Assembly: GCA_033182465.1 (NCBI GenBank) | Contig: CP137328.1 | Span: forward strand, 1,550,001-1,614,000 | Source: Sanghuangporus weigelae | Lineage: Eukaryota; Basidiomycota; Agaricomycetes; Hymenochaetales; Hymenochaetaceae | Reading direction: 5' to 3' | Length of the DNA stretch: 64,000 nt | Shown: piece by piece, positions 2,971-57,110 of the stretch | How the letters are laid out: each line of letters starts with the position of its first letter | How positions within the stretch are numbered: the stretch's first letter is position 1 | Translations under genes and position numbers: made by a program | Notes under the pieces: model-generated | The model's database searches: none | What the model saw: only the letters and a program-made list of their open reading frames with translations | Told to the model about the DNA's origin: nothing

Positions 2971-4926
2971 ATGGCACAGACGCATAATGCTTCGAGCCAC
3001 CGATTCGCCCTTCGTCCCGCGTCATTCAACAGTGTCGGCAGCGGTTCCTCAAGTCGCAGCGTTGCTGACTCCGACGAAGTAAAAGACAACATCACCGAGT
3101 TCAGCTCGTTGAGGAGTGTCCTCTACTTCGCCGGTTCCCCGGGCTCCAGTGTTGCTTTGACCGCCGAACAACAAAACGTCGCCGTTACCGAAAGTAACGA
3201 ACGCAACATGGGAAGGCGGCTATCGATGCATGCTCTTCCTTCTACCACCTCAAGCATTATGGGTGAGTGGATTCCCCGTTATATCCTGATGAGACGATCT
3301 GACGGCGCGCATTCGCTAACCTGCAGCTGAAGTCGCATCCTCAACACGAGAAGTGTTGACTATTGAAAGCTCGCAGGCAGAGCCCGCAAGCCCATGCGAC
3401 CTTGATCAGCCTGGATGTAAGTGCGCAAGGCTCATCCGTCCATAAATCTTCTCATGACCTTTTACTAGTATCTGCTGAGCCACGCAATCCACCTCCCTTT
3501 GGTTCCGATGTTCTCTTCTCCGCTGTGCAACAAAGCGTACCGGGGACCGAGGGCGTAGCGGTGGCCGAGTCTGCTGTCATTGTTGACGAGAGGTACGACG
3601 AGCATGAGTCCGTCTCAGCGGTACCAATTCGACGTACCGAACGCAACATGAGGAGACGGCCCTCGATGCACGCTCTTCCCTCGACTAACTCAAGCATCAT
3701 GGGTGAGTAGCTTCTCCAATACGCCCACCGTGAGATGACCTGACGGCATGCATCCGCGGACACGCAGTCGAAGTCGCATCTTCAACACGACAAGTGTTGA
3801 CTACGGAAGGTTCGCAAGCGGAGCCTGCCAGTACACGGCAGCTTTTTCAATCTGGATGTAAGTGCGCAAGGTCTCTTCATCGGAAATCTCCTTATTCCCT
3901 TTTGCAGTTACTTCTGAGCCACTCGATCAGCCTTCGATACGGCAATCTTTACGCGCCGCATCTCCTGAGTCTCAGCCTGTGCATCAGCCAATTGCCACCG
4001 AGAACGACAACAAAGGGCCTGCCAAGCCAAAGAAGCGCAGGAAGAGGGCGTTCAGATTAACGCGCGTAAAAAATGAGAGGGTGAAGAAGGCCAAGACAAA
4101 AACCGAAGCAGTCAATCGTCGAACAAGGCGGAATGCTCAAGAAAGAGATGTCATTGCGAGCACTGCTCAAAGGACCAGACGAGAGCCTGCGCACGAGGAA
4201 GTTGACTGGACGAACCGCCGCATGACGCGTGCAGCCACTAGAGCGCAAGCAGCGGAATCGGCTGGGACGGCACAACAAACAGAAGGTCCGACGAAGAAAG
4301 ATAAAGGAAAGGGGAAGGCTAAGGACGAACCTGATTCTGATGCGGAAGAGAAATCCCTGAAGCGGCGTCGAGACGAGGAGGACGAGGAGGACGTAGATGA
4401 TGTTCCTGTGCAGCAAAATGAACCAGGACCGTCTCGTCCCATACGTCGTACTCGTCGAAGGGTGGAGGAGAATGTCAAACTCGAGGTGCCAGAGCCTCTC
4501 GAACCACTTTTCTTCGGTCAGCGAGGCTCGCGTGGAGCACATTTCATGTTGCGAGGAATGCAACGGCGCAGAAGCTCCGCGCCAGAACCTTCTATCGAGC
4601 CGCTCGAAGGGGAGAGCAGGAGATACCGACTCCCAACTCCCGAACGATTCGATCCTGGTCCAATCGCCACCTCATCTCATATGACGCTTGAGACCTTCGC
4701 TCGTTTGCAGGAGGAACAAAACCCGCAAACGAAGACAGAGGAGGAGGAAAACGAGGTATTAAACCAGATTTCAACGTCTGAACAACGCGATGACGAAGAT
4801 CGTTGGGTGAACGGCATTCCACCCATCCCCGCTCGTCCCAGATCCGATGTCCTGCAACGGTATGAAACGACTCTTCTTGGGAGGGAAGTATTCCGTCCTG
4901 CCGACCCAGACTATTGGCGTCGTTGA
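2971..4926 (+). CDS. Gene 1: divergent orphan-family member with duplicated exons
   Basis: The product is about 574 residues and its function is unknown. The exons I read are 2971-3262, 3327-3416, 3469-3702, 3768-3857 and 3908-4926. All introns are phase 1 and the total is an exact multiple of three. Exons 3-4 repeat the end of exon 1 plus exon 2: RNMGRRLSMHALPST and RNMRRRPSMHALPST both precede a donor, and EVASSTREVLT matches EVASSTRQVLT. Exon 5 is rich in K, R, E and D (KPKKRRKR, KGKGKAKDE, KRRRDEEDEEDVDD, RRTRRRVEE) and ends DPDYWRR. The core KRRRDEE...PGPSR...RRTR is closely shared with gene H at 54.4 kb, so this is a divergent family member. It lacks the N-terminal TRxMAK motif. A basic nuclear protein is inferred. 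Confidence 0.75.
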
Positions 4927-11027: not shown

Positions 11028-11929
11028 TCAGGCAATGACGGTAGGGCCTGGATGAATCGCCTTAAGCTTTTCCCCGATTGTGAGGCGGTAGATGGCATCT
11101 TTTATTTCATCTTCTTGGATCAGCTTTCCACTTGATAGTTCCACGAGCGCATGGGCTGCGATGGTGTCCGTTTCGGGATGTTCATCGCAGGACGAGATGC
11201 CTTGCAGAGAGCCAGAATCGGATGGATCCTCTGCTGCAACCAAGCTTGCCTTATTTGTAGGCGTGGCCTCGATCTCGTCACCGGCTACCTTAGCAACCCT
11301 TCGACGCAGGCGCCGGACTCCCGTCGGGGGCGAATCTGGGTCGCCGATGGCCATATTCTCTTTGTAGCCTTCTTCGGCCTCTTCCTCCCTTCCTCTCTTC
11401 TCCCCTCGTTTGACTGGAGCAGGTTTGCCTGATGGATGATCCGAATCCATGAGCTATCTACTCAATAAAGAAAGGAGCATATCGAGACTTACTTGCATCT
11501 TCGTTTGAGTTTACGTCGTTGGACGTGTTCAAGCCACCAGCCTTTGCAGTGGTTTGTTTCGCAAAATGCGGTTTGCTTGGGGCTTGAATCCAGCTTCGGT
11601 CAGTACAGAAGCGGAGCAGGTGGCTATCACGTTTACTCACAGACTGTCTTGCGGCCGCGACGACGCGGCATGGCTTTCGATCTGCGGATGGGAGTTTGAG
11701 GACGTGCTGGGATGGTGTCGTTGTCTATAGACATTTGCGGTTGAAAGTCATCGTTGGCTGTCGGAAGGCTTCTTGGAGAAGAGGCCTGTTTGCTAACGTT
11801 AACTCTCGCCGCGTGTCTATAGACAGCGGCGGTGCTAGGTTGGTCTGCGTTGACATTGTCAGACGCGTCGGAGCCGCTACCACTGTTCCTGGACGCGTTT
11901 TCTTTTGCCATGCGTCTTGTGACGACCAT
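11028..11929 (-). CDS. Family gene A (TRxMAK orphan family)
   Basis: Three exons, 11641-11929, 11493-11582 and 11028-11428 on the minus strand, give 259 residues with both introns in phase 1. Exon 1 starts MVVTRRMAKENAS, is Ser/Asn-rich, and ends with RRSKAMPRRRGRK. Exon 2 is a 30-codon symmetric exon with KQTTAKAGGLNTS. Exon 3 has KRGEKRGREEEAEE, then YKEN, RRLRRRVAK, and a hydrophobic helix AAHALVELSSGKL near the C-terminus. There is no signal peptide or membrane segment. The Arg/Lys clusters suggest a nuclear location. No known domain was recognised and the function is unknown. Its closest relative is gene B next door. Confidence 0.8.
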
Positions 11930-12055: not shown

Positions 12056-12088
12056 CTTATATAGAGCGTGACCCTGGGCGCGGTCACG
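12056..12088 (-). promoter_or_regulatory. Palindrome plus TATA box of gene A
   Basis: On the minus strand CGTGACC-N8-GGTCACG is followed after 3 bp by TATATAAG. The arms match perfectly (7/7). It lies about 130 bp before the ATG, and the 5'UTR contains the shared AATTAACCACAACCACC motif. Confidence 0.75.
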
Positions 12089-12852
12089 TTCTTTGTTCAA
12101 CAAGGAGCCACACTCCTGATAAGTACAAACTTCGCTTCTCCCGTTTCCCTGTGCGTGAATTCCTTTCAAGGCACAACAGGTGGATTTGGGCGAGCCTTAC
12201 GTGGCGCCATGTTAACTGCATGCTAAGCGGTGGGGGAAAGGCATCCACCCGGACCTTGCATGACACCAGGCTAGTCACACACACATTCAACGCTTATGAT
12301 GCTTGGTGACGTTTTCGAGGCACAGCCGAATTTAACGATCAGTTATTCATTGAACGGATAATCATACAGGTGGGTACGAAGCCAAAAAAAGAAAGGCAAG
12401 GGCGATGCTGAAAAATAAAGTGACGATCATTCGGACTAATGAGATACATAGAGAAGAGCTAGACGAATATCACCCAAAGAGGCGCAATACGTGGATGTCA
12501 CGAATGTTCAGACGAGCAAGGATCAGTAACGGTCGGATTGACGGAACCCATGCTCCCTCAAAGGAAGGCTGGTATTTTGTCGAGCTAACGAATAGTCCTA
12601 ACTAGACCTTAACGGTGTCCAGTTGCTCTATCTCCGACCGCATCGACGAGCCTTTGGAGTCTGGTGTTTCTCAACTCGAGCTCCTTGTCAGAGTTTTGAC
12701 ATCTTCGACCTCCGAAGTTTCGAATCCCTCCATCTCGCGATCAGGCGATGACGATAGGGGTTGGATGAACCGCCTTGAGCTTTCCATGGCTTGCGAGGCG
12801 GTAGAGAGCATCATTTATTTCATTCTCTTGGATCAACTTTCCACTTGATAGT

Positions 12853-13645
12853 TCAACTAAGCACATAGGCTACGATGATGTCCGTTTCGAGACATTCAAC
12901 GCAGGACGATATGTGTTGCGGACAGCCAGGATCGGATGAATCCTCCGCTGCAACCAAGCTCGCCTTATTTGTAGGTGTGGCCTCGCTCTCGTCACCGGCT
13001 ACCTTAGCAGCCCTTCGGCGCAGGCGCCGGACACTCATCGGGGGCGAATCTGGGTCGCCGATGGCCATATTCTCTTTGTAGCCTTCTTCGGCCTCTTCCT
13101 CCCTTCTTCTCTTTTCTCCTCGTTTGGCTGGAGGAGGCTGGCCTGATGGATAGTTGGAATCCCTGAGCCATCTACTTTTCAATAAAGAAAGGAGCATATC
13201 GAAACTTACTAGCATCTTCGTTTAAGTTCACGTCCTTGGACGTATTCAAGCCACCAGCCTTTGTAGTGGCTTGTTTCACAGGGTGCTGTTTGCTTGAGGC
13301 TTGAATCCAGCTTCGGTCAGTATGAAAGCAGAGCAGGTGGCTATGATGTTTCTCACTGGTTGTCTTGCGGTCGCGACGACTCGGCGTGGCTCTCGATCTG
13401 CGGATGGGAGCTTTAGGACGCGCTGGGATGGTGTCGTTCTCTATGGGATTTTGCGGTTGACAGTCATCGTTCTCTATCGGGAGGCTCCTTGGAGAAGAGA
13501 CCCGTTTGCTAACGTTATCTCTCACCGCGTCTCTATAGACAGCGGCGGTGCTAGATTGGTCTGCGGCGACACTGTCAGACTTATCGGGCCCACTACCATT
13601 TTTCCTGGATGCATTTTCCCTAGCCATGCGTCTCGTGACGACCAT
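12853..13645 (-). CDS. Family gene B (TRxMAK family), C-terminally truncated copy
   Basis: The exons are 13357-13645, 13210-13299 and 12853-13142 (minus strand), 222 residues, with exon 1 and exon 2 lengths (289 and 90 nt) and phase-1 introns identical to gene A. It starts MVVTRRMARENAS, and exon 3 has KRGEKRRREEEAEE, YKEN and RRLRRRAAK. Compared with A, one extra base just after the codons for IIVAYVL shifts the frame and brings in a TGA at 12853-12855. The conserved ALVELSSGKL helix and the roughly 36-residue tail are therefore lost from the frame, although their DNA is still present downstream. It could be a shortened functional protein or an early pseudogene. Confidence 0.7.
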
Positions 13646-13770: not shown

Positions 13771-13805
13771 GTATAATATAGAGCGTGACCCTAAACGCGG
13801 TCACG
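13771..13805 (-). promoter_or_regulatory. Palindrome plus TATA-like box of gene B
   Basis: On the minus strand CGTGACC-GCGTTTAG-GGTCACG has perfect 7-bp arms, and 3 bp later comes TATATTATAC. The downstream 5'UTR carries CAATCAACCACAACCATCC, close to gene A. Confidence 0.78.
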
Positions 13806-14141
13806 TTCCTTGTCCAAGTAAGAAGCCACATCCCTGATTCAAACTCCGCTTCTCCCGTATCCCGTGTTCGCGAATCGCCTTCCATGCACGGAAGAGTGAG
13901 CCTTAATTGGCGCCATGTTGACTACGTCAAACTCTCATGGTGGGCATTTGTGTTTTCTAAGCATTGTCGAGTCAAATGAGAGATCATTTATTGAACGAAG
14001 GATTGCACAAAGTAAAGAAAGAAAGACAAGAGCAAAGCGGAGCCAAACCAGGTACGTACAAGCCAATCAGATACGTAGGAAAAGATTTAACTGTTGGCTA
14101 CCTGAAAGAAACGAGCTGAAATATATAGGAGGTTGGGATGT

Positions 14142-15174
14142 TTAGTCGAGGCACGCTCGGACATTTGTCGGATCTATGCGCAGTCCTGACCAGATATTAT
14201 CACCCTTTGTTCGCGTAGTCTCAGTCCCGCCGATGAACTTGCTGGAGTCAGCATTGTGCAATTTATACGACTCCGCCAGGTAGACGATGCCTTCGCTTTC
14301 CGATGTTCCCATTCTCTTGAACAGCAGCGCCATTTCGAGATTCAACGCTGACGGAGCGGACTGGCTGTCCAATCCAGAACGATTCTCTGCCTGAGAGGAG
14401 GCCGATAACTTGTTTCCTTTTTGAGTCAAGTTTCCGGACGAAAGTACCAACAAGAAAAAGGCGGCATCGATATCCTCATCGGGAGATTCAATGCAGCGCG
14501 AGTCCTGCCTCGCAGAACCGGCACTCGACGTATCCTGTATGTAGACTAAGCTCTTTGCGTCGTCACCTGCCTTGTCAACTCTCTGGCGGATGCGACGTCC
14601 ATTCGATGTGGTAGCATCATGAGCGGCACCGGCAACATTCTCCTTGTCAGTGTCGGATTCCATTCGTCTTTTCTGCACTTGTTTAAAAGCCAATTTATCT
14701 GAGGGTAGCCCGGAAATGTTGAGGAAAGAGGCCAATGGCGCAGGGGGGATCTCGAGACTTACTAGTTGGTGAGTTCATGGTGGCGGAGCTATTCGAGCCA
14801 CCAATCTTTGCAGTGGCCCGCCTATTCGTATATTCTGGAATCAGTGCCATTCAATTTAGAAACGGAACACTTAATCGAAACGGATGCTCACCTGTCTGTT
14901 TGCGCCTACAACGGCGCTTGGTTGTTTGTGAGCCACGAACAGGAGAGAGAGGGAGAGCACCGACGGTGCTGTCCTCTGTGCGGATTACGGTTTTTGGAGC
15001 GTCGCGACCCTTTGTACCCCTTCTTCGAGAAGATGCACGGACGTTTGCGACAGCTCCCGCCGTATCTTTACCGATGACGGCGTTCGTCGAGCGGTCATCA
15101 TTGTCGGCCGTGTTAGAACCGGTATAAGTATTGGCGGATGCGGCTTGTTTTGCCATTCGTCGCGTGACGACCAT
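14142..15174 (-). CDS. Family gene C (TRxMAK family)
   Basis: Three exons, 14892-15174, 14763-14834 and 14142-14698 (minus), give 303 residues, with both introns in phase 1. It starts MVVTRRMAKQAASAN, and exon 1 ends RRCRRKQT. Exon 2 is a 24-codon symmetric exon whose acceptor is TTCCAG before AATATACG, the only choice that keeps frame (YTNRRATAKIGGS). Exon 3 contains QKRRMESDTDKEN (a KEN tripeptide), RRIRQRVDK and the helix DAAFFLLVLSSGNL. It then has a longer tail than A or B (EMALLFKRMG...). No known domain was recognised. The 5' flank has the shared palindrome. Confidence 0.77.
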
Positions 15175-15290: not shown

Positions 15291-15327
15291 TACTTTAAAG
15301 TAGTGCGTGACTCTAAACGCGGTCACG
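15291..15327 (-). promoter_or_regulatory. Palindrome plus TATA-like box of gene C
   Basis: On the minus strand CGTGACC-GCGTTTAG-AGTCACG (one arm mismatch) is followed by CACTACTTTAAAGTA. The TA-rich box again abuts the palindrome. About 120 bp separate it from the ATG. Confidence 0.68.
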
Positions 15328-16073
15328 TTTCTGGTTTAATAACGAGCCACGTTATAATGCACGCGGCTTGTTTCATGCCGGAAATCAGCTCTTTCTAGTC
15401 TCAACCATTCTAATTGATTAAACCGCTCGACGATGAGGTCGGAGGCGGAATAGGTAGGTGGAGTGTAGGGTGGAAAGTCGAGTCGCAAGGTGCTCCTGCC
15501 AGTGTACTTTTCAAGACTATCGATGCTCGGCACCACCATTGTCCCGTACCTTAGTCTCTCTTTCTCTGTATGACGAAGAAGGGAAGGGAAGGGAATCGGA
15601 AGAGCTCGACGATGGCAACAGAGGTTGAGGTATTCATCTTTCACTGCGTGAAGTTGTTTTCCTTTATGATTTACGAGAAATAGATAATGGATTGCATGCT
15701 TGCACCAGTCCAGCTTAAAACGGCGCGCTCTGCTCTGAGCCTCGTTGCATCAGTATCGGAGTGCAGGGACGAGCTGAACAGATTTCCACCATATACGTCT
15801 CAAGTAGTGGGACAGTCCTTGAATTCACAGTATCGTGCATCGTTTCAAACACACAAGTGATTGCATGCAGTCTCGAGGTGATGCCTTGTCAAAATATATA
15901 GCTGAGAATAGATAATAATGATGCCAACAGTCCCAAAGCAGATCCCTCTATGTCTTCAAGCAATGTCATACGCTCGAAAACACTCGATCTTCCGAGCACG
16001 TTAGTAGCTATACCAAACCGATTCGGGGTACTTCTCTCTCATCACTATCCAAGACAGAATTAAATAACGCGCC
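15328..16073. other. Intergenic between gene C and the spermidine-synthase-like gene
   Basis: A minus-strand open frame at 15336-15644 could encode about 100 residues, but it has no recognised motif, no clear start or partner exon, and runs up against the promoter of gene C. I do not call it. The rest shows nothing distinctive. Confidence 0.35.
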
Positions 16074-24339: not shown

Positions 24340-24457
24340 CAACACATCATAAGTGCTAAACGTGTGACTAGAGCAGCATCCGGAAAGGAAAGGCTTCTTG
24401 TGTTCCGATGACATGTTTACTGTGCTATGTCCAAGCCGTGGCTGCTTAGACAGGTAA

Positions 24458-36597: not shown

Positions 36598-36630
36598 CGT
36601 GACCGTGCTTAGAGTCACGTTCAAATAAAG
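36598..36630 (+). promoter_or_regulatory. Palindrome plus TATA-like box of gene G
   Basis: CGTGACC-GTGCTTAG-AGTCACG is followed after 3 bp by AAATAAAG. It lies about 135 bp before the ATG, and a partial 5'UTR motif (CAACCTCCTGGTATTTAACCAC) follows, cut here to its recognisable words. Confidence 0.72.
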
Positions 36631-38385: not shown

Positions 38386-39484
38386 GCGTGACGCGTTCAT
38401 TACGCGGCGAGTCCCACTGGCGGTCCAACGATCGCGCTCGATTCCGCTCAACGATGGAGACTCACCTGGTCCCGATACAGTTGCGTTCTCTCTCCGTCTC
38501 AGCAGCCAAGGCATCTCTCTTCGGTATTTTGTACATATTTCGAATGTTGGACTTTATTTCGATCTCGTTTGTACTTTTCCTTTTCCTTGTTCCTCTTGTA
38601 CAGTATCAATGTAATATACGGACGGTCGGCTTCAGCCGTTCTTTGGCTCGGTGATCTTCCGAGATTGCCGTAGCACCTCATAACTCGAGGGTGTGATAGC
38701 GTCTCAACGTCGTAACGAAAGGTTTGGATCGAGGCCAAGCGCGACTGACATTCAAGCGTCTCTTGGAAGTCGAGAGCTTCATTGTCTTATCGGCCTGAAA
38801 CAGAACGACATAAGCATCTATGATGATCGGTATAAGCGATTTGACTTTGGTGTAGAGGGTGTCCTGAGATGAGTATTAGCCAGACAGTAGACTGCGCCTG
38901 CGCCTTTGACTGAAGTGGACGTTCAAACGTTGACTTGGATTTTCATAATTTCTCATGCCTTTGACGAGAAGGTAACGTGACCTACCTCGTTTCGTTCAAG
39001 TTCGATTCTTCGTCGAACTCCAATCGAGGCGACCTCTGATACACGATTCCCTCATCAAAGTATGGTATATCGTCCCAGACAAATGGACATGAGAGAGACA
39101 CTGGGTAACTAAATGAGCTCGCCAAATTCCAGCTGCTCAGTTTTCTGCAATATCTTCACATTATTGAAGTCTGAGCTGCTTGCATTTCAATGCGAATAAT
39201 CGTTTTCAAGTCTATCTGGTCTAGTACTAGTCTCTTACTGTGTCCGGCCGAGGATACTGTACTTTCCTGCATAGGTCGTCATGGAATAGAATACGTCTGC
39301 TTCAGCTCACCTATCATATGTCTTGGATTACTGATGCCATGTTGTGTACTTTCTAAATGTCCAAATGAGAGAATTTCTGCTTTACTATAAACGCACTAAA
39401 CTCGGAACGATTTACTTCGTTTGCTAGAATTGTCAGCACGTCCATATAACCAGACTTGAAGCGTGGCCTGGTACTGAACAAGGA
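38386..39484. other. Intergenic between G and pseudogene I
   Basis: It holds the 3' flank of gene G, including its stem-loop (38651-38672), and then upstream DNA of copy I. No gene is supported. Confidence 0.4.
38651..38672 (+). other. 3' stem-loop of gene G
   Basis: CGGTGATC-TTCCGA-GATTGCCG gives a full 8-bp stem with two G-U pairs, followed by TAGCACCTCATAA. It differs from the gene D hairpin at several paired positions while the stem is kept. Confidence 0.5.
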
Positions 39485-40670
39485 ACGCGACCAAGCGTAT
39501 TTGAGGCCCTACACTCGTCTCTGACCTCTTGACAATCGATTACAACCACCTCCCACTTGTATCCAAGCCTTAACAAGCCTAGGATTTGCCCTAATCCATT
39601 TCCCGCTTGTACATTTCATCACCACGGACATTGGGCTCTTTACACGTGCCCTCTCAGGTGCGACCAAACCACGTCGTGCTGTGAGGGACACAGTAAGGAA
39701 AGGCGGCGCAAGCCATAAAACACCGACTCCAGATGATTCCGAAAGTGTTCGTTCAGGTCTAATGCCTGTCTCACTCGCTGATGAAGGCGTGGCTTTAATC
39801 ACAAAGCCATCATCGAGCAACGGCAAATCAAATCCGCAAGTCCGCAACACGAAAACTTTGCATGGCACCCCCAACAACACGGAGGTAAGCATGACAGGAC
39901 GAAAGAGAGGAAGAAGAGACTTGTGTCACAGATTCGCAAATAATAGAGGATACTGGTGCAACTCGGGTCAATGCACGGCGCATCCGTAGAAAATTCACCG
40001 CCATCAACGAGACGCCTTCGCGTGTGTCTAGCCTCAGAGATGCTACGAATTCGTGCCGCAAAGCAAAGGCCGATGGCGGTCTTTGCATGCCGGGACAGAA
40101 TGGCGCAAAGCTCAAGCCTGCCAATATGCATAGTTTCGACGGTCTTCTCCGCTTGGCTGAAGTATCCTCAGGGTATCTTCAAGAGGAAAAGGAAAATGAG
40201 CCAACCACGCAGGGCTCAACAAGAAGCCCCATGCAGAGCGCGCATCACAAGGGAAAGTTCTTCAATGGGCGGATGGATGGGGCATGTACTATCATGGCGC
40301 TATCTACGCTGCGAATATTCGTTGGTTTTCAGCACAAATGCCAATCCAATGAGTGAGGAATGACGAGGGTCAAAATCCCCTCGGACCTTATTTGACCGCC
40401 GAACGACGCAACACTGCGATTGCTCCATCCTTCTCGCACGTCCACGCTGACTTGCAAAACAATTCTCCGCAAGCATCAAACGGGCTCGAAATCGGCAATC
40501 CTGACTACAACAACGATGATGGCGAAGCAGGAGAGACATCGGCGTGCGAACTACGAGAGCTAGAACCAGGCGACTTCGCATTTCTGGTTCGCCGAGCTAC
40601 TCCATATGTTTTCGGAGAGTCCGACATGCGGAATTCCGCCAAAACCAGTCGAAGAAATGAAGAGCGGTGA
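39485..40670 (+). pseudogene. Family copy I, pseudogene lacking its start and most of exon 1
   Basis: A degraded promoter (ACGCGACCAAGCGTATTTGAGG) and the 5'UTR are followed by CATTTCATCACCACGGACATTG, cut here to show the point: where J, K and L have ACATGG, copy I has ACATTGG. After text matching ACGCGAGCC the alignment jumps to the end of intron 1 (CTCTCAG near 39653-39659), so almost all of exon 1 is deleted. Exon 2 remains (TKPRRAVRDTVRKGG). Exon 3 begins TGRKRGRRD, then loses the shared frame at least twice. Its parts still show EEKEN and, near the end, LEPGDFAFLVRRATPYVF as in J-L. Its 3' flank is the block copied to the start of units K and L. Confidence 0.75.
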
Positions 40671-41057
40671 GATTATGTATGCAATGTTGCATTTTGTGCT
40701 CGTTTCCGGCCCCTTTCCGCACATCCCGTAGATTTCGGCTTTCCTTTTCTTTAAAAATAATTACCTTGTTTCCCTGTCAGGTCTCCTAAATAAGTTACCC
40801 TGTACATCGAAGCTGTATTTCATAGATGCACTCCTCGGCTCAGTAATCCTTCGAAATCGCTGTGGCACCTTATAAACCTAGTAGGCGAGAATCCATGCGC
40901 CGTAGAGTTTTGATGACGCGAAATGGAGCGACACAGGCAAACAAGATGCGGTGAGCAGGTTTTGTAGAGTGCGAACAGACGTACCCTGTGATTATCTTGA
41001 CTTATACCGGGAAGGCGAGTCGCAGTTTGAGTCGTAGCCTGGTGGTGAACAAGTAAC
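40671..41057. other. 3' flank of I forming the 5' end of the J unit
   Basis: It contains TTGTGCTCG, a T-rich tract, CAGGTCTCCTAAATAA and the stem-loop CAGTAATC-CTTCGA-AATCGCTG (40841-40862) followed by TGGCACCTTATAA. The same block opens units K and L. No gene is seen. Confidence 0.6.
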
Positions 41058-41089
41058 GTGACCACGTCCGAGCCACGTACTATTTAAGG
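41058..41089 (+). promoter_or_regulatory. Palindrome plus TATA box of gene J
   Basis: CGTGACC-ACGTCCG-AGCCACG, then TAC and TATTTAAG. The 5'UTR has CCTCACATTTAACCACAACC and CACTCCTCACTCAC. It lies 163 bp before the ATG. Confidence 0.78.
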
Positions 41090-41220: not shown

Positions 41221-42527
41221 ATGGCACTTATTACGCGAGCCATGGCGAAGAAACTCGCCGCCAACAATGGTGGCCCTGAACCGACCAGGACCGTCACTGC
41301 GGAAGCACAACGTAATGTCACCGATGGAAAGGACTCTGCCGTCAATGAAGACACGGAAAGAGATGTCAATGAACGCTGCGTCTCTGCAAATGACAGAGGC
41401 GCAGAGAGCAATGAGGTTCTCATTCCTATAATCTCCACAGAGAGCGAGTCGATCGCTACTCGCTCGCCTCCATCTACTAACCCGAAATCGGGAACCATTG
41501 GACGTGGTCGCGGTACAAAGGCAACTTGTGAGTGTTCATATCTGAAACTCAATCCCTTTTATACTGAACGGGATTCCTCCCAGGTGCGACCAAGCCACGT
41601 CGCGTTAGACAAACCACCAGAAGAAAAGGTGGCTCAAGTCGTGGAGGATCGACTCCGGATGTTTCTGGAAGTGAGTGACCAAATTCCGGTACCTGTCTCA
41701 TTAGCTAAAGAATCATTGCTATGATCGCAGAGATTTCGCCAGATCACGGCGATGCGAAGCATAATAACGGTACCTCGGACGATACCAGCATAGTAATAAC
41801 CGGACGAAAGAGAGGGAGAGAAGAGACGAGCGACGCAGATCTGCAAACGGGTGATGTTGTTTCGAAGCGAGCTAAGACACGGCGCATTCATCGGAACATC
41901 CGCCGGAGTACACCCGTTTGTGAAGCGCCTTCAGTTGCACGCAACCTCCGAAATACCACAAACGCGAACCCGGGAGTAGAAGAAGCTAACGACGTCTTAA
42001 TCTTGCCTGAGACCCAGCACGGCGCAGAGCAAAGACATGATGAGATGCCTATTCTCAACAGTGTTTCCGACCCCATTGCAGTCTGTTTGGGACAGTCTCG
42101 GAAGGAAAATGTTAATGCACCCGCACCACGTTTAACGTCAAGCCCCTTACAACGTTCTCGTCGCAAGGGCACGTGCTCAGCGACAGAATTCGTTTTGGCA
42201 CGAACTATGCTAGTCCTGTCCAAACCACGGATTTCTTCTAGACTCCGGAATGATACCGAGCCTAGTGGCGACAGGAACGAGGCTGGTTTTCCGCACAGAA
42301 ATCCATTCGAATCTTTCCCGTCCACCGAGCGACACAACGTTACAATGGCTCCGTCCTCGCCAGGTGTCTATGTCGAGGTTGTCGAAACAGAAACAGCTCC
42401 AACATGGGAGGCGCGAGAACTAGATCCGGATGATTTCGCATTTCTACTTCGTCGATCAATGCCGTATCGATTTGAAGAATCGAATGTGCGGAATGAGGCA
42501 TTTACCAGACCTGCGCAAGAAGAATGA
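41221..42527 (+). CDS. Family gene J (TRxMAK family, array subgroup)
   Basis: The exons are 41221-41527, 41584-41670 and 41731-42527, 396 residues, with both introns in phase 1. It starts MALITRAMAKKLAANNGG, one residue longer before TR than in A-H. Exon 1 ends GRGRGTKAT. Exon 2 reads TKPRRVRQTTRRKGGSSRGG. Exon 3 has GRKRGREETSDAD, RAKTRRIHRNIRRST, QSRKENVNAPAPR (KEN), FVLARTMLVLSKPRI (the hydrophobic helix) and a subgroup-specific C-terminus LDPDDFAFLLRRSMPYRFEE. No signal peptide or known fold is seen. It is nearly collinear with K and L and probably intact. Confidence 0.82.
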
Positions 42528-43751: not shown

Positions 43752-44835
43752 TAAGTATTTAAATTTGTGATTGAAAGTAATTCAGAGTTTGGGAGCGGTT
43801 TTCCCCCACGAATAACTTGAAAGGTCAAACACAAGTCTCCACAATGATAGTTTCCTCTCGTTCTCTTTCTCGCCTTTTAACGGCCGGCATAATCCTTGAT
43901 TCCGAACGATAGTAATGAGCGCAACGACATTTTACGCACAAGCCACGGAGGTACTGGCGGGATGTCTCGAATCGAAATGATTTAGACGCTGTGCTCGATC
44001 GCGACAAGGGGTTTGCGCCGAGGTGGAGCAAAATGTGCCAGAAACGGTGTGCATAGAACATCAAGCGATGGTGAGTTCATCTGCTGATGACTTCTGCATA
44101 TCCACTAGGCTCCATGAATTGAAAGAAGCGACCGAAGGGCAAGTTGCGACTCCGGCCATGAAGGAGGAGATTGCGATGTTGAAGCTAGAGAGTAATACAT
44201 GGGATCTCGTCCAGTTGCTCATGTCGTGAATAAACTCTACCATTTGGTAGACGCCAAATAAACTCAAATCTAATGCACAATTAGCGTTCGTAAGACCGAG
44301 CTAGCTCCATTCCCATCCGCAAGAACTCCTCCGCAAGAATTCCTACTTACCTAAGTTACTAGAACGCTCAGGCAATCTATCTTAAGGGACTCTCCTCTCC
44401 TCAATGAGCTCGTGATAGTCCGGAAATGGCTGCATGATAGCGCATCTGTGTCGATTCCACCTGAAAATGCGACAGGCTACTGCAATGCTGCTTTTTGTGC
44501 TCGTATCTCGTCGGTTTCGGGTTTCCTTTTTTTAAATGATTACCTTGTTTCCTTGTCAGGTCTCCTAAATAAAGTTCCCTGCACATTGAAGATGTATTGA
44601 ATAGACGAGCCCCTCGGCTCTGTGATCCTTCGAGAGCGCTGTGGCACCTCAAAACTTGATAAGTGAGAATCCGTGAGCCGTGTGAATTTTGATGGCGCAA
44701 AAGAGAGCATCATAGGCAAGCAAAATTCAGTGAGCAGGCTTTGTAGAGTGCGAACAGACGTACCCTATGATTATCTTGACTTATACTGGGCAGGCGACTC
44801 GCAGTTTGAGTCGTGGCCTGGTGGTGAACAAGTAA
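43752..44835. other. J-K spacer: NUP84-like fragment, junction and 5' block of unit K
   Basis: The first part (43,850-44,482) is the NUP84-like fragment, listed separately. After the junction at about 44,482 comes the copied family 3' flank block, with a stem-loop near 44,620-44,642 (CTGTGATC-CTTCGA-GAGCGCTG). No other gene is seen. Confidence 0.5.
43919..44482 (+). pseudogene. NUP84/NUP107-like pseudogene fragment (J unit)
   Basis: Pieces in order read DAVLDRDKGFAPRWSKMCQ, LHELKEATEGQVATPAMKEE, ESNTWDLVQLL and then, after several breaks, text matching LNELVIVRKWLHDSASV. The same order appears at 49.8-51.2 kb, where the pieces continue into unmistakable NUP84 motifs. The fragment stops at the unit junction, CAGGCTACTG, where the NUP84-like frame would continue GYWKFT. 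It is not functional. Confidence 0.65.
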
Positions 44836-44867
44836 CGTGACCGCGTCCGAGCCACGTACTATTTAAG
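44836..44867 (+). promoter_or_regulatory. Palindrome plus TATA box of gene K
   Basis: CGTGACC-GCGTCCG-AGCCACG, then TAC and TATTTAAG. The 5'UTR has CCTCACAATCAACCACAACC. It lies 156 bp before the ATG. Confidence 0.8.
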
Positions 44868-44991: not shown

Positions 44992-46285
44992 ATGGCACTC
45001 ATTACGCGAGCCATGGCAAAGAGACTCGCCGCCAACAATGCTAGCTCTGGATCCGCCGCAGTCGCTACCGATAAAGGACGCACTATTCTTATCGAGAATG
45101 ACACCACCGTCAATGCAGACGAGGAAAGGGATGACAATGGAAGCTGCGTTTCTGCTAATGGCAGAGACACAGGGTCCAGTGCAACTCCCATGCCTAACAT
45201 CCACAAAGAGAGCGAGTCAATCCACACTCGCCCTCCTCATCCTACTGTTCCAAAAGCAGGAACTACTGGACGTGGTCGCGGTACGAAATCAACTCGTGAG
45301 CATTCATATCTGAAACTCGGTCCTCTTTTATACTGAACGGGACTCCTCCCAGGTGCGACCAAGCCACGTCGCGTTAGACAAACCACCAGGAGAAATGGTG
45401 GCTCAAGTCGTGGAGGATCGACTCCGGATGTTTCTGGAAGTGAGTAACCAAATTCTGGTACCCGTCGCATTAGCTAATGAATTATCGGCCATAATCGCAG
45501 AGAGTTCTCCAGACCACGGCGATGCAAAGTATAATGACGGCACCTCGGAAGATACCAGCAAAGTAACAACCGGACGAAAGAGAGGGAGAGAAGAGACAAG
45601 CGACGCGGATCTGCAAGCGGGTCATATTGTTCCGACGCGGGCCAAGACACGGCGCATTCATCGGGACATCCGCCGAAGTTCACCTGTCGGCGAAGCACCT
45701 TTGGATGCGCGCAAACTCTTAAATTGCACTAATTCGAGCCCCGAAGTAATGACTAATGATGGTCTTAACTTGCCTGATACCCAGTACGGCGCAGAGCGCA
45801 GATCTGACGAGACACCTCGCCTCAGTGGTGTTCCCGGCTCCGTTGTGGTCTGTTCAGGACAATTTCCGGTGGAAAAGGAAAATGCGCCGGCAGAACGTCT
45901 CACAGTGAGCCCCCTGCACCGCTCTCACCGCAAAGGAACATGCTCTGGAAGAGAATTCGTTTCGGCACGGACTATGTTGGCACTATCCAAACCACGGATT
46001 TTCGCTGGACTCCAGAATAACTCCGGGTCCGGTGGAGAGAGGAACGAGGCTCGTTTTCCACACGAAGATCCGTTCAAATCTCTTCCGTCCGTCGAGTGGA
46101 ACGACGGCGCAACGGCTCCGTCCCTGCTAGATCTCCCTGTCGAGGCCGCCCAGGCTTCAACATGGGAAGCACCACGACTAGATCCGGATGACTTCGCATT
46201 TCTACTTCGTCGAGCAACGCCGTGCAGATTTGAGGAATCAAACGTGCGCAGCGAGGCAATTATCAGACCTGCGCAAGAAGAATGA
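44992..46285 (+). CDS. Family gene K (TRxMAK family, array subgroup)
   Basis: The exons are 44992-45295, 45353-45439 and 45501-46285, 391 residues, with both introns in phase 1. It starts MALITRAMAKRLAANNASSG. Exon 2 starts with the same TKPRRVRQ text as J. Exon 3 has GRKRGREETSDAD, RAKTRRIHRDIRRSS, FPVEKENAPAERL (KEN), FVSARTMLALSKPRI and LDPDDFAFLLRRATPCRFEE. Exon 1 is closest to gene L, exon 3 and the 3' flank closest to J, which suggests exchange or conversion between units. No known domain is seen; function is unknown. Confidence 0.82.
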
Positions 46286-47658
46286 TGCACAGCGCTATAC
46301 CTCTTGCTCGTTGTTTCTGTCCCCTTTCTAATTATCTCGCCAGATTTAGCTTTCTATTTCACCGTACCTAGCATTTTCCTCCAGTACCTCAGATGTAATA
46401 AATGGATCGTTTATCGCCTCGGTGATCTTGTTAGATCGCCATGGTGTCTCACAATCTTGAGAGAGAAATAACTGCAATGCTTTGACGAAGGGGACTAACC
46501 GCCAGTATATCAAAGGATAGTTGAAGAAGAGCCTTCTACGAAAATCTCAGTCTACTGTACAATTGTTCGATGAGATCGATGTAAAGTCACAAAGAAATGG
46601 GCAAACATATCATACCGGTACATTGACCTGCTTTCCTGCCGCCGGGGGACTGGACGTCTTCTTGTGGACCGTCCTTGCTTGGAAGAGTTTGGCTTTCATG
46701 ATTTTCGCCTGAGCCTGAAAAAAGGACTATCTTCTCCCACGCCCCAGATACTCAAACAGGCCTGCGACGATCAGGACCGATTTGGAGACGACTAAACCTG
46801 CTCAAAGCCGGAGAAACATCTATTCTATGTAGTGATAATTGCGATTTCATCGACAATCAGAATCGTCTTTCTTCCTAAAGATATCTATGTTATATTTAAT
46901 ATTATTTAAATTTGTGATTGAAAGCAATTCAGAGTTTGGGAGCGGTTTTCCCACGAATATGGAACCAAACCTCTCCCGAACAACTTGAAAGGTCAAACAC
47001 AAGTCCACAATGATAGTTTCCTCTCGTTCTCTTTCTCGCCTTTTAACGGCCGGCATAATCCTGGATTACAAACGATAGAGATAAACCCAAACCCAATGCT
47101 CAACCAGTATTCGTAAGACCAAACCAGCTCCATTCCCATCCTCAAAAGAGCTCCTCCGCAAGAATCCCTCTTGCCAGCTAGAACGCTCGCACAATCTATT
47201 CTTCGGGACTCTCCTCTCCTCAATGAGCTCGTGATAGTCCGGGAATGGCTGAATGATAGCGTTCCTATGTCGATTCTGCCTGAAAACGCGACAGGCTACT
47301 GCAATGTTGCTTTTTGTGCTCGTATCTCGTCGGTTTCGGGTTTCCTTTTTTTTTTTTAATAATTACGTTGTTTCTCTGTCAGATCTCCTGAATAAATTTC
47401 TCTGAGCATTGAAGCTGTATTTGATAGATATGTTCCTCGGCTCAGCAATCCTTCGAGATCGCTGTGGCACCTCGTAAAGTTGGTAGGCGAGAATCCGTGA
47501 CCCCCAAAGTTTTGACGACGCAAAATAGAGCGACACAGGCAAGCAAAATTCGGCGGGCAGGCTTTGCGCAGTGAGGATCGACGTACCCTGTGATCATCTT
47601 GACCTATACCGGGCAGACGAATCGCGATTCGAGTCGTGGCCTGGTGCTGAACAAGTAA
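46286..47658. other. K-L spacer
   Basis: It holds the 3' flank of gene K with stem-loop CGGTGATC-TTGTTA-GATCGCCA (46420-46441), an empty MITE site near 46,905 (AATATTATTTAAATTTG), a short NUP84-like piece up to the junction at 47,300, and the copied flank block of unit L. No gene is supported. Confidence 0.55.
47090..47300 (+). pseudogene. NUP84/NUP107-like pseudogene fragment (K unit)
   Basis: One frame reads ARTLAQSILRDSPLLNELVI then VREWLNDSVPMSILPENATG, the best-preserved version of this segment in the window. It is cut at the junction after GGCTACTG. The upstream TWDLVQLL region present in J and L is deleted here. Confidence 0.7.
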
Positions 47659-47690
47659 CGTGACCGCGTCCAAGCCACGTACTATTTAAG
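47659..47690 (+). promoter_or_regulatory. Palindrome plus TATA box of gene L
   Basis: CGTGACC-GCGTCCA-AGCCACG, then TAC and TATTTAAG, with the shared 5'UTR motif (AGAATTAACCACAACCACTC). It lies 156 bp before the ATG. Confidence 0.8.
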
Positions 47691-47814: not shown

Positions 47815-49122
47815 ATGGCACTCATTACGCGTGCCATGGCAAAGAAACTCGCCGCCAACAATGCTAGGTCTGGATCCTCCGCAGTCGCTGTCGATAAAGG
47901 ACGCACTATTCCTAGCGAGAAGGACACCACCGTCAATGCGGACGAGGAAAGGGATGACAATGGAAGCTGCGTTTCTGCTAATGGCAGAGACACAGGGACC
48001 AGTGAAATTCCCATGCCTAACATCGACATAAAGAGCGAGTCAGTCCACACTCGCCCCCCTCATCCTACTGGACGTGGTCGCGGTACGAAAGCAACTCGTG
48101 AGCATTCATATCTGACATTCGGTTCCCTTTCATACTGAACGGAACTCCTCCCAGGTGTGACCAAGCCACGTCGCGATAGACAAGCCACCAGGAGAAAAGG
48201 TGGCTCAAGTCGTTGCGGATCGACTCCGGATGTTTCTGGAAGTGAGTAACCAAATCTGACACCTGACTCGCTAGCTAATGAACCATCAGACATGATCGCA
48301 GACATTCCGCCAGACCATGTTCCATCGGGGACTGGACCACGCAATGCAAAGGTTAACAACGGTATCTCGGAAGATACCAGCATTGTAGCAACCGGCCGAA
48401 AGAGAAAAAGAGAAGAGACGAGCGATGCAGAGTCGCAACTGGGTCGTGATAATGTTTCGACGCGTACTACGCCACGGCGGCGCATCCGTCGGAACACCCG
48501 GCAAAGTACATTTGTCGACGAAACGCCTTCAGTTGCACGCAACCTCCGGGACTCTACCAACTCGAGCCCCGAAGCAAAGACAAATGCTGGTCTTGATTTG
48601 CCTGAGACTCGGTACGGTACAGTGCATGGATCCGACGAGGCGCCTCTCAACAATGTTCCCGGCATCGATCCAGTCTGTTCTTGTCATTTTCAGGGGGAGA
48701 AGGAAAATACTCCCGCGGAAGGCTCGCCGTCAAGTCCACCGCCGCGCTCTATTCGTAAGGGCGCGTGCTCCGCCGGAGAATTCGTCGGAGCACGGACTAT
48801 TCTGGCATTATCCAAACAGCGAGTCTTCTCTAAACCCGAGCATAGTCTCGAGCCGCGCAAGAAGAGCAACGGAGCTCACTCCCAGACAGAAACGTCGCAC
48901 GCAAGTCCGTTTGAATTTTCTCTGTCCAACGAGAGAGCCGGCGCTTCTTCCGTGCCAGGTGACCATGCCGAGGTTGTCGAGATAGAAACAGCTCCGATAT
49001 GGGTGGCGCGGGAACTGGATCCGAATGACTTCGCGTTCCTGGTCCGCCGAGCAACGCCGTACAGATTTGAGGAATCATATGTGCGCAACGAGGCATTTAC
49101 CAGACCGACGCCAGAAGAATAA
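47815..49122 (+). CDS. Family gene L (TRxMAK family, array subgroup)
   Basis: The exons are 47815-48097, 48155-48241 and 48302-49122, 396 residues, with both introns in phase 1. It starts MALITRAMAKKLAANNARSG; exon 1 is shorter than in K by a clean in-frame gap before GRGRGTKAT. Exon 2 has TKPRRDRQATRRKGGSSRCG. Exon 3 has GRKRKREETSDAE, TPRRRIRRNTRQS, QGEKENTPAEG (KEN), FVGARTILALSKQRV and LDPNDFAFLVRRATPYRFEE. It appears intact. Function is unknown. Confidence 0.82.
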
Positions 49123-53780: not shown

Positions 53781-54192
53781 GGGTGGAGGATAAAGAAAAG
53801 AGTCGTCAGCCGTTAGGACAGCATAAAAGTTCTTTCGAGCTTTCTTGGCGCGTTCTTGTGGCTTGCATCAAGCGCGAGTCATGACAAAGGCTTTTTCTAC
53901 GTCGGTAATAACCGATGGGCACCCTCTTACTCTTACTGTGCTAGAACTGGGCTAGACTTAAGAAAGACATGCAACCGGTGTTTGAGCGTTAGTACATGGG
54001 CTGTTGCTTCAATTGCAAGCAAGCGGCCTGGCGGAGACGACCCGTCACATGGGACAAAATCAGGCAAGGCAGACGTATAGACAACTTCCCCAAAGAGTGA
54101 ATAAAATGAATTACCGAAATGAGAACAAAGGGACCCTCGCGCTGAAAGCAAGTGCATACCATACCAAAAAGAGTCCGTGGCCGGTTAGATAA
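53781..54192. other. Intergenic between FunK1 kinase and gene H
   Basis: Divergent 5' flanks; nothing beyond the gene H promoter half-site was seen. Confidence 0.4.
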
Positions 54193-54210
54193 CGTGACCG
54201 CGTCCCTTCA
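54193..54210 (+). promoter_or_regulatory. Half palindrome of gene H
   Basis: GATAACGTGACCGCGTCCC keeps the left arm and the GCGTCC spacer seen in genes K and L, but the right arm and the TATA box are not recognisable. CGACCACGACCACGAAC further down resembles the 5'UTR motif. Confidence 0.55.
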
Positions 54211-54393: not shown

Positions 54394-57110
54394 ATGGTCG
54401 CGACTAGACAGATGACAAAAGCCCGTGCAGCCAAGCAGGGTGGCTCCGGTGCAGCTGCCCGCGCGCTCACTCAGACCGGGGCTCCCAAGGCCATCGTCGC
54501 ACCCACAAACACTGTTACCCGCCGGGGCGCAAGGCGAGGAGCCGCCGACAATCGCGGTTCTGCTCAACGTGAGGGCAGCAGTGTCCCTGAACTGTACGGC
54601 GTGAAGGAAGACGAGGAATCTGCTTCCATGGCTTCTCTCTCCAACTCCAAAGGCAAGAAGAGTGAGTACTCGGCTTCACGATCCGTCCTGATTTGAGCTT
54701 AAAGAGTATACCATTAGGCTCAGCTCGATCGTCGGGTCCAGTCCAGACCACAACCACAACCACAACCACAACCACACAGACGTGTGGCTTATATCTTGAA
54801 GTCAAGATAGAGCACATCTCCGCTTCAATAAGCGGACACTCCGGTAAAGTCTCTTCGACAAACATCTCCTTCATCTCGCTCAGCGAAACATGCTTGACAG
54901 ATACATCTTCACCACCTCCCCCACCACCCAAGAAAGTCAGGCAGCCGCGGAAGGCACCCGCAGAGGGCGGGAAGCCCAAAGCGAACACCAAAAGGGGCAA
55001 AGCCGCTGAGAAGACAGCAGCGGTGCCAGACAACGAGACGGTCAGGACGGGCTCCAAGCGTCGCCGCGAAGATGCGGACGATGACGATGAGGGCCAGCCA
55101 GAGACCTCGCGACAAGGTGCGCGAAGGACTCGTCGAAGGGTAGAGCCTCCTGCAGATCAGGAAAGCGAGCCCGTCGTCAAACGAACGCGGTCTCGTAAAG
55201 CCGCCGCCATTCCCATTCCTGAGCCTCCGAAGCCCCGCGCTTCTCGAAGGAAGGCTCAGGCGAGTCGCCCTGAGCCTGCGCCATCTAAATCTCGAGTGAC
55301 CAGAAAGGAGGTCGCTGCGTCACATGACGCTACCGCCGAGGCGGAGGGAAAAGCGCGAAAGAATAAAGGAAAGGGCAAGGCGGTCGACTTACCTTCGAGC
55401 GAGGTCGCTACGGTAGGCTCGAAGCGGAGACGCGACGAAGAGGATGTCGACGTCGAAGACGTTACACAATCGCCAGTGGATCCTGGCCCTTCCCGACGTA
55501 CGACTCGCCGGACTAGGCAGAAAGTCGAGGGGCCAGTGAAATCTGAGTCTTCAACGGAAATCGCCAGACCGAGACGAAGGACTACGAGGACGAAGGCTGC
55601 TAACAAAGGAAAGGGTAAGGCGAAGGCAGAAACGCCTGAGCCTACTGAGCCGAAGCGTGAGTCTCTCGAGCCTGAGGGACAGGTTCGAGAGCGTTCTCCA
55701 GGAGCAACAAGTCCGGCGCTCGTTAAACAAGAATCGCAATATTCTTCGCCTGTCCCGATCACGGAAGAATCGACCTCGGGTTCCAACGCCAAAGCCTCTT
55801 CATCCGCGGTCTGCAAGAAAGAAGAGCCTTCGTCATCTCCGCTCCGATTGCTACTGACAGCGATGGATTATTCGGAGTGGGAAGCCGCTGCCATCGCACC
55901 GCTCGATACTCACGCTCCCTCCCAAGCTGAGCCTGCGCCGACGCTCCCAATTGACGGTCCATCCTCCACTGTATCCCGGCTCGATCCATCTGTACCGGCG
56001 TTGACACTGAAACCAGAGGAGTCGATGCTCATTCTAGCGCCGCGACGCGTTCTTCCCGAGTCCGCACTGCGAGGGACCTACTTCGGAGACGAGGAGGAGG
56101 AGGAAGAAGCACGCAGCTCACGCTCGAGCGAAGCGGACGACGACGACGGCGGCGGCAGGGATGATAGCCGGGGCGCCGTCATACAAGCATGGTCCGCCTT
56201 CACCTCACTCTGTCTAGAGGCTTGTGCCAACATGGGCTCCTTCGCAGCTTCGTCTCCGGCGCAACAGGACTCCGGGGGTCCCGCGCGAACATCACCGGCT
56301 TCGATAAACGCAGTGCCGAAGAGTGGGACGCGAGTGGGCGCTGCTAATTGTGTTTCGTCCGTGACTCCGGGTGCTAGGAGCGAGGAGGACGAGAGAAGCC
56401 CGACTTCGTCATCTGAGGTTTCTGAGATGCTGGGGGATGGTGTAAGGTCGGATAGCGAGGACGACGAGACGTCGCCTTGTCGTACCAGCGGGGCCTTGAC
56501 AGTTGTATCTCATAAGAGCCTTACGCGTCTGTCCCCGCCATCTCGCAGATCGCTAACTATTCTTCCTGCGTCCTTCGAGCAGCCAGATGCAGGAAGCTCG
56601 AGCATGGCACTCGTCCTGTACGACAGGGGCTCCTCCAAGACCGAGACCGAGACCGAGACTGGGAATCCAAAGGCTGGACCGTCGCGACTACCCGAACGCA
56701 CGCCCCCCTCGCCCGCGCCGTCCGATGTGTCCTTCCCGAGCGACAGCTTCGGGTTGCACTCGGACGACGAGATTGAGATCGAGTGGACGGGAGGGCCCGA
56801 GCCCGCCCCAGAGCCGCCGACGCCTCCGCCCATCCGGGCGGCTCGGACAGCTCGACCTCCAGTAGCTCCCCACTCAACGCCATCGCCGACAAAATCCCCA
56901 GCGGGCCCCTCGCAGACCGAAGGTCGCGAGGAAGATCACGACCGCGTCTTCCACACCGAGGACGAAGTGCCTCCTGAGCTCAGGAAGGCATACCGTTTCG
57001 CGCGGTCCACTGCGTTCAGCTATCTGCGCGGCGGCGTTCGCGAAAAGAGCTTGCTGGGTATGCAAAAGTGGGTATTCGGACTTGATCCTCGATTTTCGAC
57101 TGGGCGCTAG
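54394..57110 (+). CDS. Family gene H (TRxMAK family, longest form)
   Basis: Exon 1 is 54394-54661 (MVATRQMTKARAAKQGGSG...KGKK, phase-1 donor). Exon 2 starts at 54718. The frame stays open to TAG 57108-57110 (886 residues). A phase-1 intron at 54844-54900 (GTAAAG...TTGACAG, 57 bp) would match the family and give 867. A (CAACCA)n repeat encodes poly-Thr in exon 2. Exon 3 shows PPPPPPKKVRQPRK, then twice a module of GSKRRR, D/E-rich run and RRTRRR/RRTTRRTR, with AT-hook-like Arg/Pro text (RKAAAIPIPEPPKPRASRRK) and KGKGKA. A long acidic Ser/Pro-rich region follows. The last 40 residues look folded (PPELRKAYRFARSTAFSYLR). The modules match gene 1. A disordered chromatin-type protein is inferred. 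Confidence 0.78.

What the first reader, a model, noticed from the sequence alone, without database searches (positions are those of the whole stretch)
2971..57110. An undescribed orphan gene family of 13 copies within 54 kb
Genes A, B, C, D, F, G, J, K, L and H, plus broken copies E and I, share a start of M-x-x-(x)-TR-x-M-[AT]-[KR] (lost with exon 1 in I), a first exon of about 260-315 nt with a phase-1 donor, a small symmetric second exon (63-126 nt) and a third exon with KR-x-RE and RR-x-RRR modules. Gene 1 lacks the N-terminal motif but has the same phases and the KRRRDEE/PGPSR/RRTR core. I recognise no Pfam domain. The proteins look nuclear and disordered. This is the best candidate for a new system in the window.
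Basis: seen in the sequence. Interest (0 to 1): 0.9.

Follow-up and report, generated by a model that had tools for sequence, protein, structure and literature searches.

The report
Fungal gene family with private promoter
A stretch of fungal DNA carries about a dozen fast-changing copies of an undescribed nuclear-protein gene, and the copies share one unusually well-preserved DNA switch, which suggests that they are turned on together and perhaps destroyed together each cell cycle.

Summary
The family is real. Eleven copies encode the N-terminal M-x-x-(x)-TR-x-M-[AT]-[KR] motif, and ten gave three-exon models with phase-1 donors. All 20 exon indels among K, L and M are multiples of three. E is a pseudogene and F looks decayed. 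Gene 1 is doubtful: of four members tested it resembles only H, and no three-exon model was found. No Pfam family reached its cut-off in the pieces scanned. (1) All 11 copies carry a promoter element related to AACGTGACCGCGT; 9 have it within one mismatch, and those are the only such sites in the window (0.05 expected). (2) The short copies share a KEN box (5 of 6 lineages) and a helix A-x-x-L-phi-x-L-S-like pattern (6 of 6), far above shuffles; the helix resembles Sin3-interaction motifs. Best reading: co-transcribed, disordered nuclear proteins removed by the APC/C, with a corepressor-type docking helix. The function is inferred. Taxonomic spread, expression and organism could not be tested, because no fungal genomes were available.

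The parts
12853..13645 (-). Copy A, exons 13357-13645, 13210-13299, 12853-13142; 222 aa, shortened by a 1-nt indel relative to B
11028..11929 (-). Copy B, exons 11641-11929, 11493-11582, 11028-11428 (259 aa)
14142..15174 (-). Copy C, exons 14892-15174, 14763-14834, 14142-14698 (303 aa)
23213..24156 (+). Copy D, exons 23213-23492, 23551-23643, 23696-24156 (277 aa)
24617..25520 (+). Copy F, probably decayed: exon 1 24617-24878, exon-3 reading frame 25044-25520; no in-phase GT donor for intron 2, KGN where others have KEN, weakest promoter element of the 11
27447..28402 (+). Copy G, exons 27447-27759, 27829-27891, 27951-28402 (275 aa)
36764..38385 (+). Copy J (long type, no KEN), exons 36764-37055, 37116-37211, 37274-38385 (499 aa)
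39456..40664 (+). Copy E, pseudogene: most of exon 1 and intron 1 missing; degenerate promoter remnant at 39483-39506
41221..42527 (+). Copy K, exons 41221-41527, 41584-41670, 41731-42527 (396 aa)
44992..46285 (+). Copy L, exons 44992-45295, 45353-45439, 45501-46285 (391 aa)
47815..49122 (+). Copy M, exons 47815-48097, 48155-48241, 48302-49122 (396 aa)
54394..57110 (+). Copy H (long type, 867 aa, no KEN), exons 54394-54661, 54718-54843, 54901-57110
2971..4926 (+). Gene 1, doubtful member: shares a KRRRDEE-PGPSR-RRTR module with H; no N-terminal motif, no promoter element within 3 mismatches upstream of its ATG, no three-exon model found
12078..12090 (-). Promoter element of B (1 mismatch)
13795..13807 (-). 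Promoter element of A
15317..15329 (-). Promoter element of C
23080..23092 (+). Promoter element of D
24456..24468 (+). Promoter element of F (3 mismatches in 13)
27280..27292 (+). Promoter element of G
36596..36608 (+). Promoter element of J (2 mismatches; outer arms AACGTGAC and GTCACGTT are a perfect inverted repeat)
41055..41067 (+). Promoter element of K (1 mismatch)
44834..44846 (+). Promoter element of L
47657..47669 (+). Promoter element of M
54191..54203 (+). Promoter element of H (first arm only)
11355..11363 (-). KEN box of B in exon 3; others: A 13069-13077, C 14637-14645, D 23764-23772, G 28019-28027, K 42102-42110, L 45875-45883, M 48700-48708, pseudogene E 40189-40197
11133..11168 (-). 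Sin3-interaction-like helix of B; others: C 14439-14474, D 23914-23943, F 25314-25346, G 28181-28213, K 42189-42221, L 45956-45988, M 48781-48813, pseudogene E 40273-40305

Best explanation
A fast-evolving, tandemly amplified family of intrinsically disordered nuclear proteins, switched on together through one dedicated promoter element and, in the short copies, removed together by the APC/C through a KEN box. A conserved amphipathic helix in exon 3 docks a folded hub, most likely the PAH domains of the Sin3 histone-deacetylase corepressor, while basic patches hold the protein in the nucleus or on DNA. The protein would therefore act as a time-limited recruiter of a chromatin corepressor. Shown: the family, the coding exons, the shared promoter element, the KEN and helix motifs. 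Inferred: that the element drives co-expression, nuclear location, APC/C recognition, Sin3 binding, a cell-cycle role.
For: Promoter: AACGTGACCGCGT with at most one mismatch occurs 9 times in the window, each time in front of a family copy, against 0.05 expected and at most 1 in 100 dinucleotide shuffles; J has 2 and F has 3 mismatches. With D as reference, the 14-mer there averages 12.86 of 14 matches over the other seven lineages, against a median of 8.86 for all 14-mers of the 400-nt upstream region and a maximum of 10.0 in 20 single-base shuffles. A second arm GYCACG follows in 9 of 11 copies (D has ATCACA, H none); CTATTTAAG follows exactly in 5 of 11 and as an AT-rich variant in most of the rest. 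The two copies with a broken structure, E and F, have the weakest elements (PWM 6.0 and 19.0). KEN is in 5 of 6 short-type lineages (shuffle mean 0.37; 0 of 5000 reach 5) and the helix pattern in 6 of 6 (shuffle mean 0.05; 0 of 5000); a stricter helix pattern is in 4 of 6 (shuffle mean 0.03; 0 of 5000). Five of the eight exon-3 KENs in the models are preceded by D, N or E, as in the published consensus [DNE]KENxxP (PMC5717348, passages seen). The helix is close to phi-x-x-L-phi-x-phi-A given for PAH2 binders and LXXL-phi-X-phi-A for REST (PMC8657803 and PMC10163088, passages seen). AlphaFold places a helix over the motif in B (residues 84-98 of exon 3, overlapping the best-scored block) and inside it in L (153-160, low confidence).
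Against: J and H have the promoter and N-terminus but neither KEN nor the helix pattern. Copy A, also shortened, keeps a perfect element, and the intact copy J has the second-weakest, so decay of gene and element do not match perfectly. With up to 3 mismatches the element gives 24 matches against 15.6 expected, reached by 3 of 100 shuffles, so only close matches are informative. The first helix position is usually Ala where PAH2 binders have a hydrophobic residue, and the last is usually Ser rather than Ala. PMC8657803 itself says that SID conservation is low and prediction hard. The helix pattern was written after looking at the copies, so its shuffle figure is optimistic. AlphaFold confidence is low throughout, and it also draws a second helix in each chain (B 105-120, L 228-238). 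A weak Pfam SAP25 hit for D (E 0.11) vanished with the 32-aa peptide and counts for nothing. No D-box was found in the short copies with the pattern used. No expression, localisation or interaction data were available.
Confidence: 0.33

Rival explanations
1. The copies are APC/C pseudosubstrates or modulators (working like Acm1 or Emi1), and the helix docks something other than Sin3; the family tunes the cell cycle rather than chromatin.
For: KEN is kept across lineages far above shuffles; disordered, short, fast-evolving proteins, as such inhibitors often are (recalled).
Against: The inhibitor Acm1 also has an ABBA motif, and BubR1/Mad3 uses a KEN box together with a D box (PMC5717348 passages); no D-box was found in the short copies with the pattern used. 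ABBA was not searched for.
Confidence: 0.12
2. The genes belong to a genetic conflict (selfish or incompatibility genes) whose tandem growth, rapid divergence and decay reflect an arms race; the shared promoter ensures joint timing, for example at meiosis.
For: Tandem arrays with patchy similarity: K and L share a 97%-identical 3' flank but are 77% identical in exon 3, and L and M are 93% identical in exon 1 but 71% in exon 3; a pseudogene and a decayed copy beside intact ones; A against B has dN/dS near 1.
Against: dN/dS stays below 1 in exon 3 of K, L and M (0.38-0.48); exon 1 of L/M at 1.76 rests on a dS of 0.045 only. No feature specific to known fungal conflict genes was tested for.
Confidence: 0.15
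3. A fast-turnover nuclear family with no specific corepressor or APC/C link: basic disordered proteins that bind DNA or RNA, with motif resemblances that come from common descent and biased composition.
For: Basic patches, 15-18% K+R; related copies inherit motifs, so lineages are not fully independent; short motifs are easily over-read.
Against: KEN and the helix survive where exon 3 is only 25-36% identical between lineages (four pairs), and both beat composition-preserving shuffles.
Confidence: 0.3

Closest known systems
APC/C substrates with a KEN box (class described in PMC5717348)
   Same: KEN in a disordered region, in five of eight models after D, N or E, in L and M with a Pro two residues on
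   Different: No D-box found in the short copies; no homology to a named substrate found; degradation untested
Sin3-interaction domains (Mad1, HBP1, Pf1, TGIF1, REST; also the AA/VxxL helix of KLF9/10/13, the last recalled)
   Same: Single helix in a disordered protein, A-x-x-L-phi-x-L-S close to phi-x-x-L-phi-x-phi-A
   Different: Ala instead of a hydrophobic residue at the first position and Ser instead of Ala at the last; no DNA-binding domain recognised by Pfam in the pieces scanned; binding untested
Lineage-specific tandem gene families of fungi (recalled as a general kind)
   Same: Tandem arrays, rapid divergence, decayed copies, no Pfam domain
   Different: A promoter element better conserved than the rest of the upstream sequence, not found within one mismatch before the other genes of the window

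Membership tests
APC/C (KEN-box) substrate | KEN motif in a disordered segment | tested here: met
   8 of 9 short-type copies with the N-terminal motif have KEN in exon 3 (F has KGN); J and H have none; low AlphaFold confidence and no structure around it
APC/C (KEN-box) substrate | Flanks as in [DNE]KENxxP | tested here: inconclusive
   Five of eight exon-3 KENs have D, N or E before; a Pro follows at the second residue in L and M and at the fourth in K, and further off or not at all in the others shown
APC/C (KEN-box) substrate | Ubiquitination and loss in late mitosis or G1 | not testable with these tools
   needs protein work
Sin3-interacting repressor | Amphipathic helix phi-x-x-L-phi-x-phi-A | tested here: inconclusive
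   helix predicted at that place, but first and last positions differ from the published consensus
Sin3-interacting repressor | Binding to a PAH domain | not testable with these tools
   no Sin3 sequence of this organism at hand, and a two-protein complex could not be folded
Any Pfam family | Score above the curated cut-off | tested here: not met
   10 pieces (9 exon-3, gene 1) and 10 exon-1 pieces scanned; a few sub-threshold matches (best E 0.054), none reached its cut-off
Lineage-restricted orphan family | Absent outside one genus or order | not testable with these tools
   No genome held for this window and no fungal collection offered; viral and bacterial scans gave no confirmed relative
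Co-regulated gene set | Shared, constrained promoter element not found before other genes | tested here: met
   for this 64-kb window only; expression not tested

The most novel reading that the evidence does not exclude
A self-contained fungal regulon: a private palindromic promoter element (AACGTGAC-N9/10-GYCACG) read by an unidentified factor drives a rapidly diversifying set of APC/C-controlled, corepressor-recruiting nuclear proteins, so that the control DNA is held fixed while the proteins are free to change, as expected of a conflict over chromatin or chromosome transmission.
Probability: 0.15. Interest if true: 0.75.

Novelty: new variant of a known kind. Interest (0 to 1): 0.5.

Why it matters
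Multi-copy fungal genes without a domain are common and usually left as 'hypothetical'. Here the shared promoter element gives a direct handle: one DNA motif that can be scanned genome-wide to list the whole regulon and used as bait for its transcription factor. The KEN box and the helix turn 'function unknown' into two simple experiments. If right, it would show a young gene family wired into cell-cycle timing and corepressor recruitment.

Tried and rejected
Searched the window's own genome: none is held. Relatives outside: the exon-1 alignment was too diverse for a pattern scan; two single-protein scans of viral contigs matched 2 and 14 stretches by pattern, none confirmed by tblastn. The promoter pattern gave 23 viral and 2 bacterial stretches; none of the 25 has the N-terminal motif within 330 nt downstream, and I take them as chance. 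PDB by sequence: one match at E 0.15, not followed. PHROGs none at E 0.01, Rfam none at gathering score, tRNA none. The Pfam SAP25 match of D (E 0.11) was tempting because SAP25 is a Sin3-associated protein (recalled), but it did not return with the peptide and was dropped; a GRIP match with the peptide (E 0.0077, below cut-off) was also dropped. BLASTP of H exon 3 with gene 1 or J showed little (best E 1.9 and 0.041); window-shuffled Smith-Waterman was used instead. tblastn also listed five weak places (E 0.5-0.95) outside the family, which I ignored. Paper searches for the promoter string, for Agaricomycete orphan or KEN-box families (15 of 238 listed; none; 10 of 38 listed) and for basidiomycete + KEN box + Sin3 (none) showed no description of this family; I saw only the listings. 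The PWM scan was built from the 11 sites it finds and is circular; the claim rests. Gene 1 was tried for a three-exon model without success (exon and intron lengths were limited, so a longer-intron model is not excluded).
Full report
What was checked. The window looks fungal: it contains a fungal-type protein kinase (PF17667, E 4e-34), a BRF1-like transcription factor gene, an SNF2-type helicase, a short-chain dehydrogenase and an amino-acid permease. No whole genome is held for it.

The family. A six-frame search finds TR-x-M-x-[KR] just after an ATG at 11 places. With a simple splice-site score, ten copies give a three-exon model of 222 to 867 residues. For A, G, M and H I did not take the best-scoring combination but one in line with the other copies, so their exact boundaries are less certain. 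tblastn with the models finds two further places with good E-values: F (24617-25520) and E (39456-40664, start). E has lost most of exon 1. F has an open exon 1 and exon 3 but no GT donor that keeps the phase of intron 2. Gene 1 (2971-4926) was compared with H, J, D and C: it scores above window-shuffled controls only against H (200 against a mean of 95.6, 0 of 300 shuffles). It lacks the N-terminal motif and the promoter element, and no three-exon model was found from its ATG, so I do not count it as a secure member.

Coding evidence. In the three pairwise alignments of K, L and M, 20 of 20 exon indels are multiples of three, against 6 of 37 in introns and flanks (the pairs are not independent). 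dN/dS in exon 3 is 0.42, 0.48 and 0.38 by NG86; for the whole gene it is 0.58-0.72 by YN00 and ML. A against B is 0.72-0.78 by exon (NG86) and about 1.0-1.1 for the whole gene (ML, YN00), and A has one 1-nt exon indel. Exon 1 of L against M gives 1.76, on a dS of only 0.045, and means little. Similarity along K, L and M is patchy: K and L are 97% identical in the 3' flank but 77% in exon 3, and L and M 93% in exon 1 but 71% in exon 3. This could be gene conversion between neighbours. The tandem unit drags along pieces of a nuclear-pore gene (Nup84/Nup107; 50097-50384, E 2.1e-12; 44355-44597, E 0.0071, below cut-off).

The promoter element. Aligning the upstream regions of the 11 copies showed a nearly fixed block, AACGTGACCGCGTYY...GYCACG, followed by a TATA-like stretch (CTATTTAAG exactly in F, G, K, L and M; AT-rich variants in most others; none clear in H). 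Within one mismatch, AACGTGACCGCGT occurs 9 times in 64 kb, each time in front of a family copy, with 0.05 expected and at most 1 in 100 dinucleotide shuffles. J has two mismatches and F three; at up to three mismatches there are 24 matches against 15.6 expected, so loose matches say little. The inverted pattern TGACCGCGT-N2-6-RGYCACG gives 5 matches (A, C, G, L, M), with none in 100 shuffles. Taking copy D as reference and one copy per lineage (8 lineages: A, C, D, F, G, J, L, H), the 14-mer at this place averages 12.86 of 14 matches over the other seven; the median over all 14-mers of the upstream region is 8.86, and 20 single-base shuffles reach 10.0 at most. L and H as reference give the same top value at the same place. 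H, whose protein is hard to align with the short copies, has the 13 bases unchanged. In J the arms AACGTGAC and GTCACGTT form a perfect inverted repeat; H lacks the second arm and D has a weak one. In the pseudogene E the element is degenerate (PWM 6.0 against 19-27.5 for the 11 sites from which the PWM was made), and F has the weakest of the 11. Against this, A, also shortened, keeps it whole, and the intact J is second weakest. On balance this is what selection on a functional promoter would give, on few decayed copies.

The protein motifs. Exon 1 has M1, T4, R5 and M7 invariant in 11 of 11 and in most copies a basic end such as RRGRK. Exon 3 of the short copies runs KR-x-RE, KEN, a basic stretch, then a helix [DE]xxxAxxLLxLS; in K, L and M the KEN lies further downstream, but still before the helix. 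The automatic alignments do not put these KENs in one column; the common order is my reading. One representative per short lineage (B, C, D, F exon 3, G, K): KEN in 5 of 6 (shuffle mean 0.37, 0 of 5000 shuffles reach 5), the helix pattern in 6 of 6 (shuffle mean 0.05, 0 of 5000), a stricter form in 4 of 6 (mean 0.03, 0 of 5000). In 31,654 residues of other reading frames of the window KEN and the helix pattern each occur twice. The helix pattern was written after looking at the sequences. J and H have neither. AlphaFold on exon 3 gives low-confidence, mostly uncoiled chains, with a helix on this motif in B (84-98; the block 91-100 is the best-scored, mean 75) and in L (153-160, low confidence), and one further helix in each (B 105-120, L 228-238).

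Reading. KEN with Asp, Asn or Glu before it is the published APC/C degron form ([DNE]KENxxP, PMC5717348, passages seen); five of the eight model KENs fit that first position. The helix is near the published PAH-binding forms (PMC8657803, PMC10163088, passages seen) but not identical. I therefore propose co-transcribed, disordered nuclear proteins that recruit a corepressor such as Sin3 and are removed by the APC/C. The steps after 'motif present' are inference. The most serious rivals are a nuclear family with neither link, and a genetic-conflict family.

Novelty. No Pfam, PHROG or Rfam match at the thresholds used, for the pieces scanned, and no description found in the paper searches named above (listings only). 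Taxonomic spread remains open because the collections I could search hold viruses, bacteria and archaea, phages and plasmids.

Noticed in passing
window 50097-50384; also 44355-44597 and the repeat at 47206-47304: Pieces of a Nup84/Nup107 nuclear-pore gene lie between the tandem copies K, L and M and after M. I saw no intact Nup84 gene, but did not search for one systematically.
   Followed up: partly
window 51416-53695 (-): A fungal-type protein kinase gene (PF17667) sits between copy M and copy H.
   Followed up: no
window 3194-3489 and 3634-3928: A 75%-identical direct repeat inside gene 1; the second copy carries stop codons in the matching frame, so the first-exon model of gene 1 is doubtful.
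   Followed up: partly
window 42615-42914 and 46352-46651: The 3' flanks of K and L are 97% identical although exons 1 and 3 are only 72% and 77% identical, which suggests gene conversion.
   Followed up: partly
window 54001-62000: G+C rises from about 48% to 54-57% from copy H onwards and falls back after 62000; the reason is not known.
   Followed up: no
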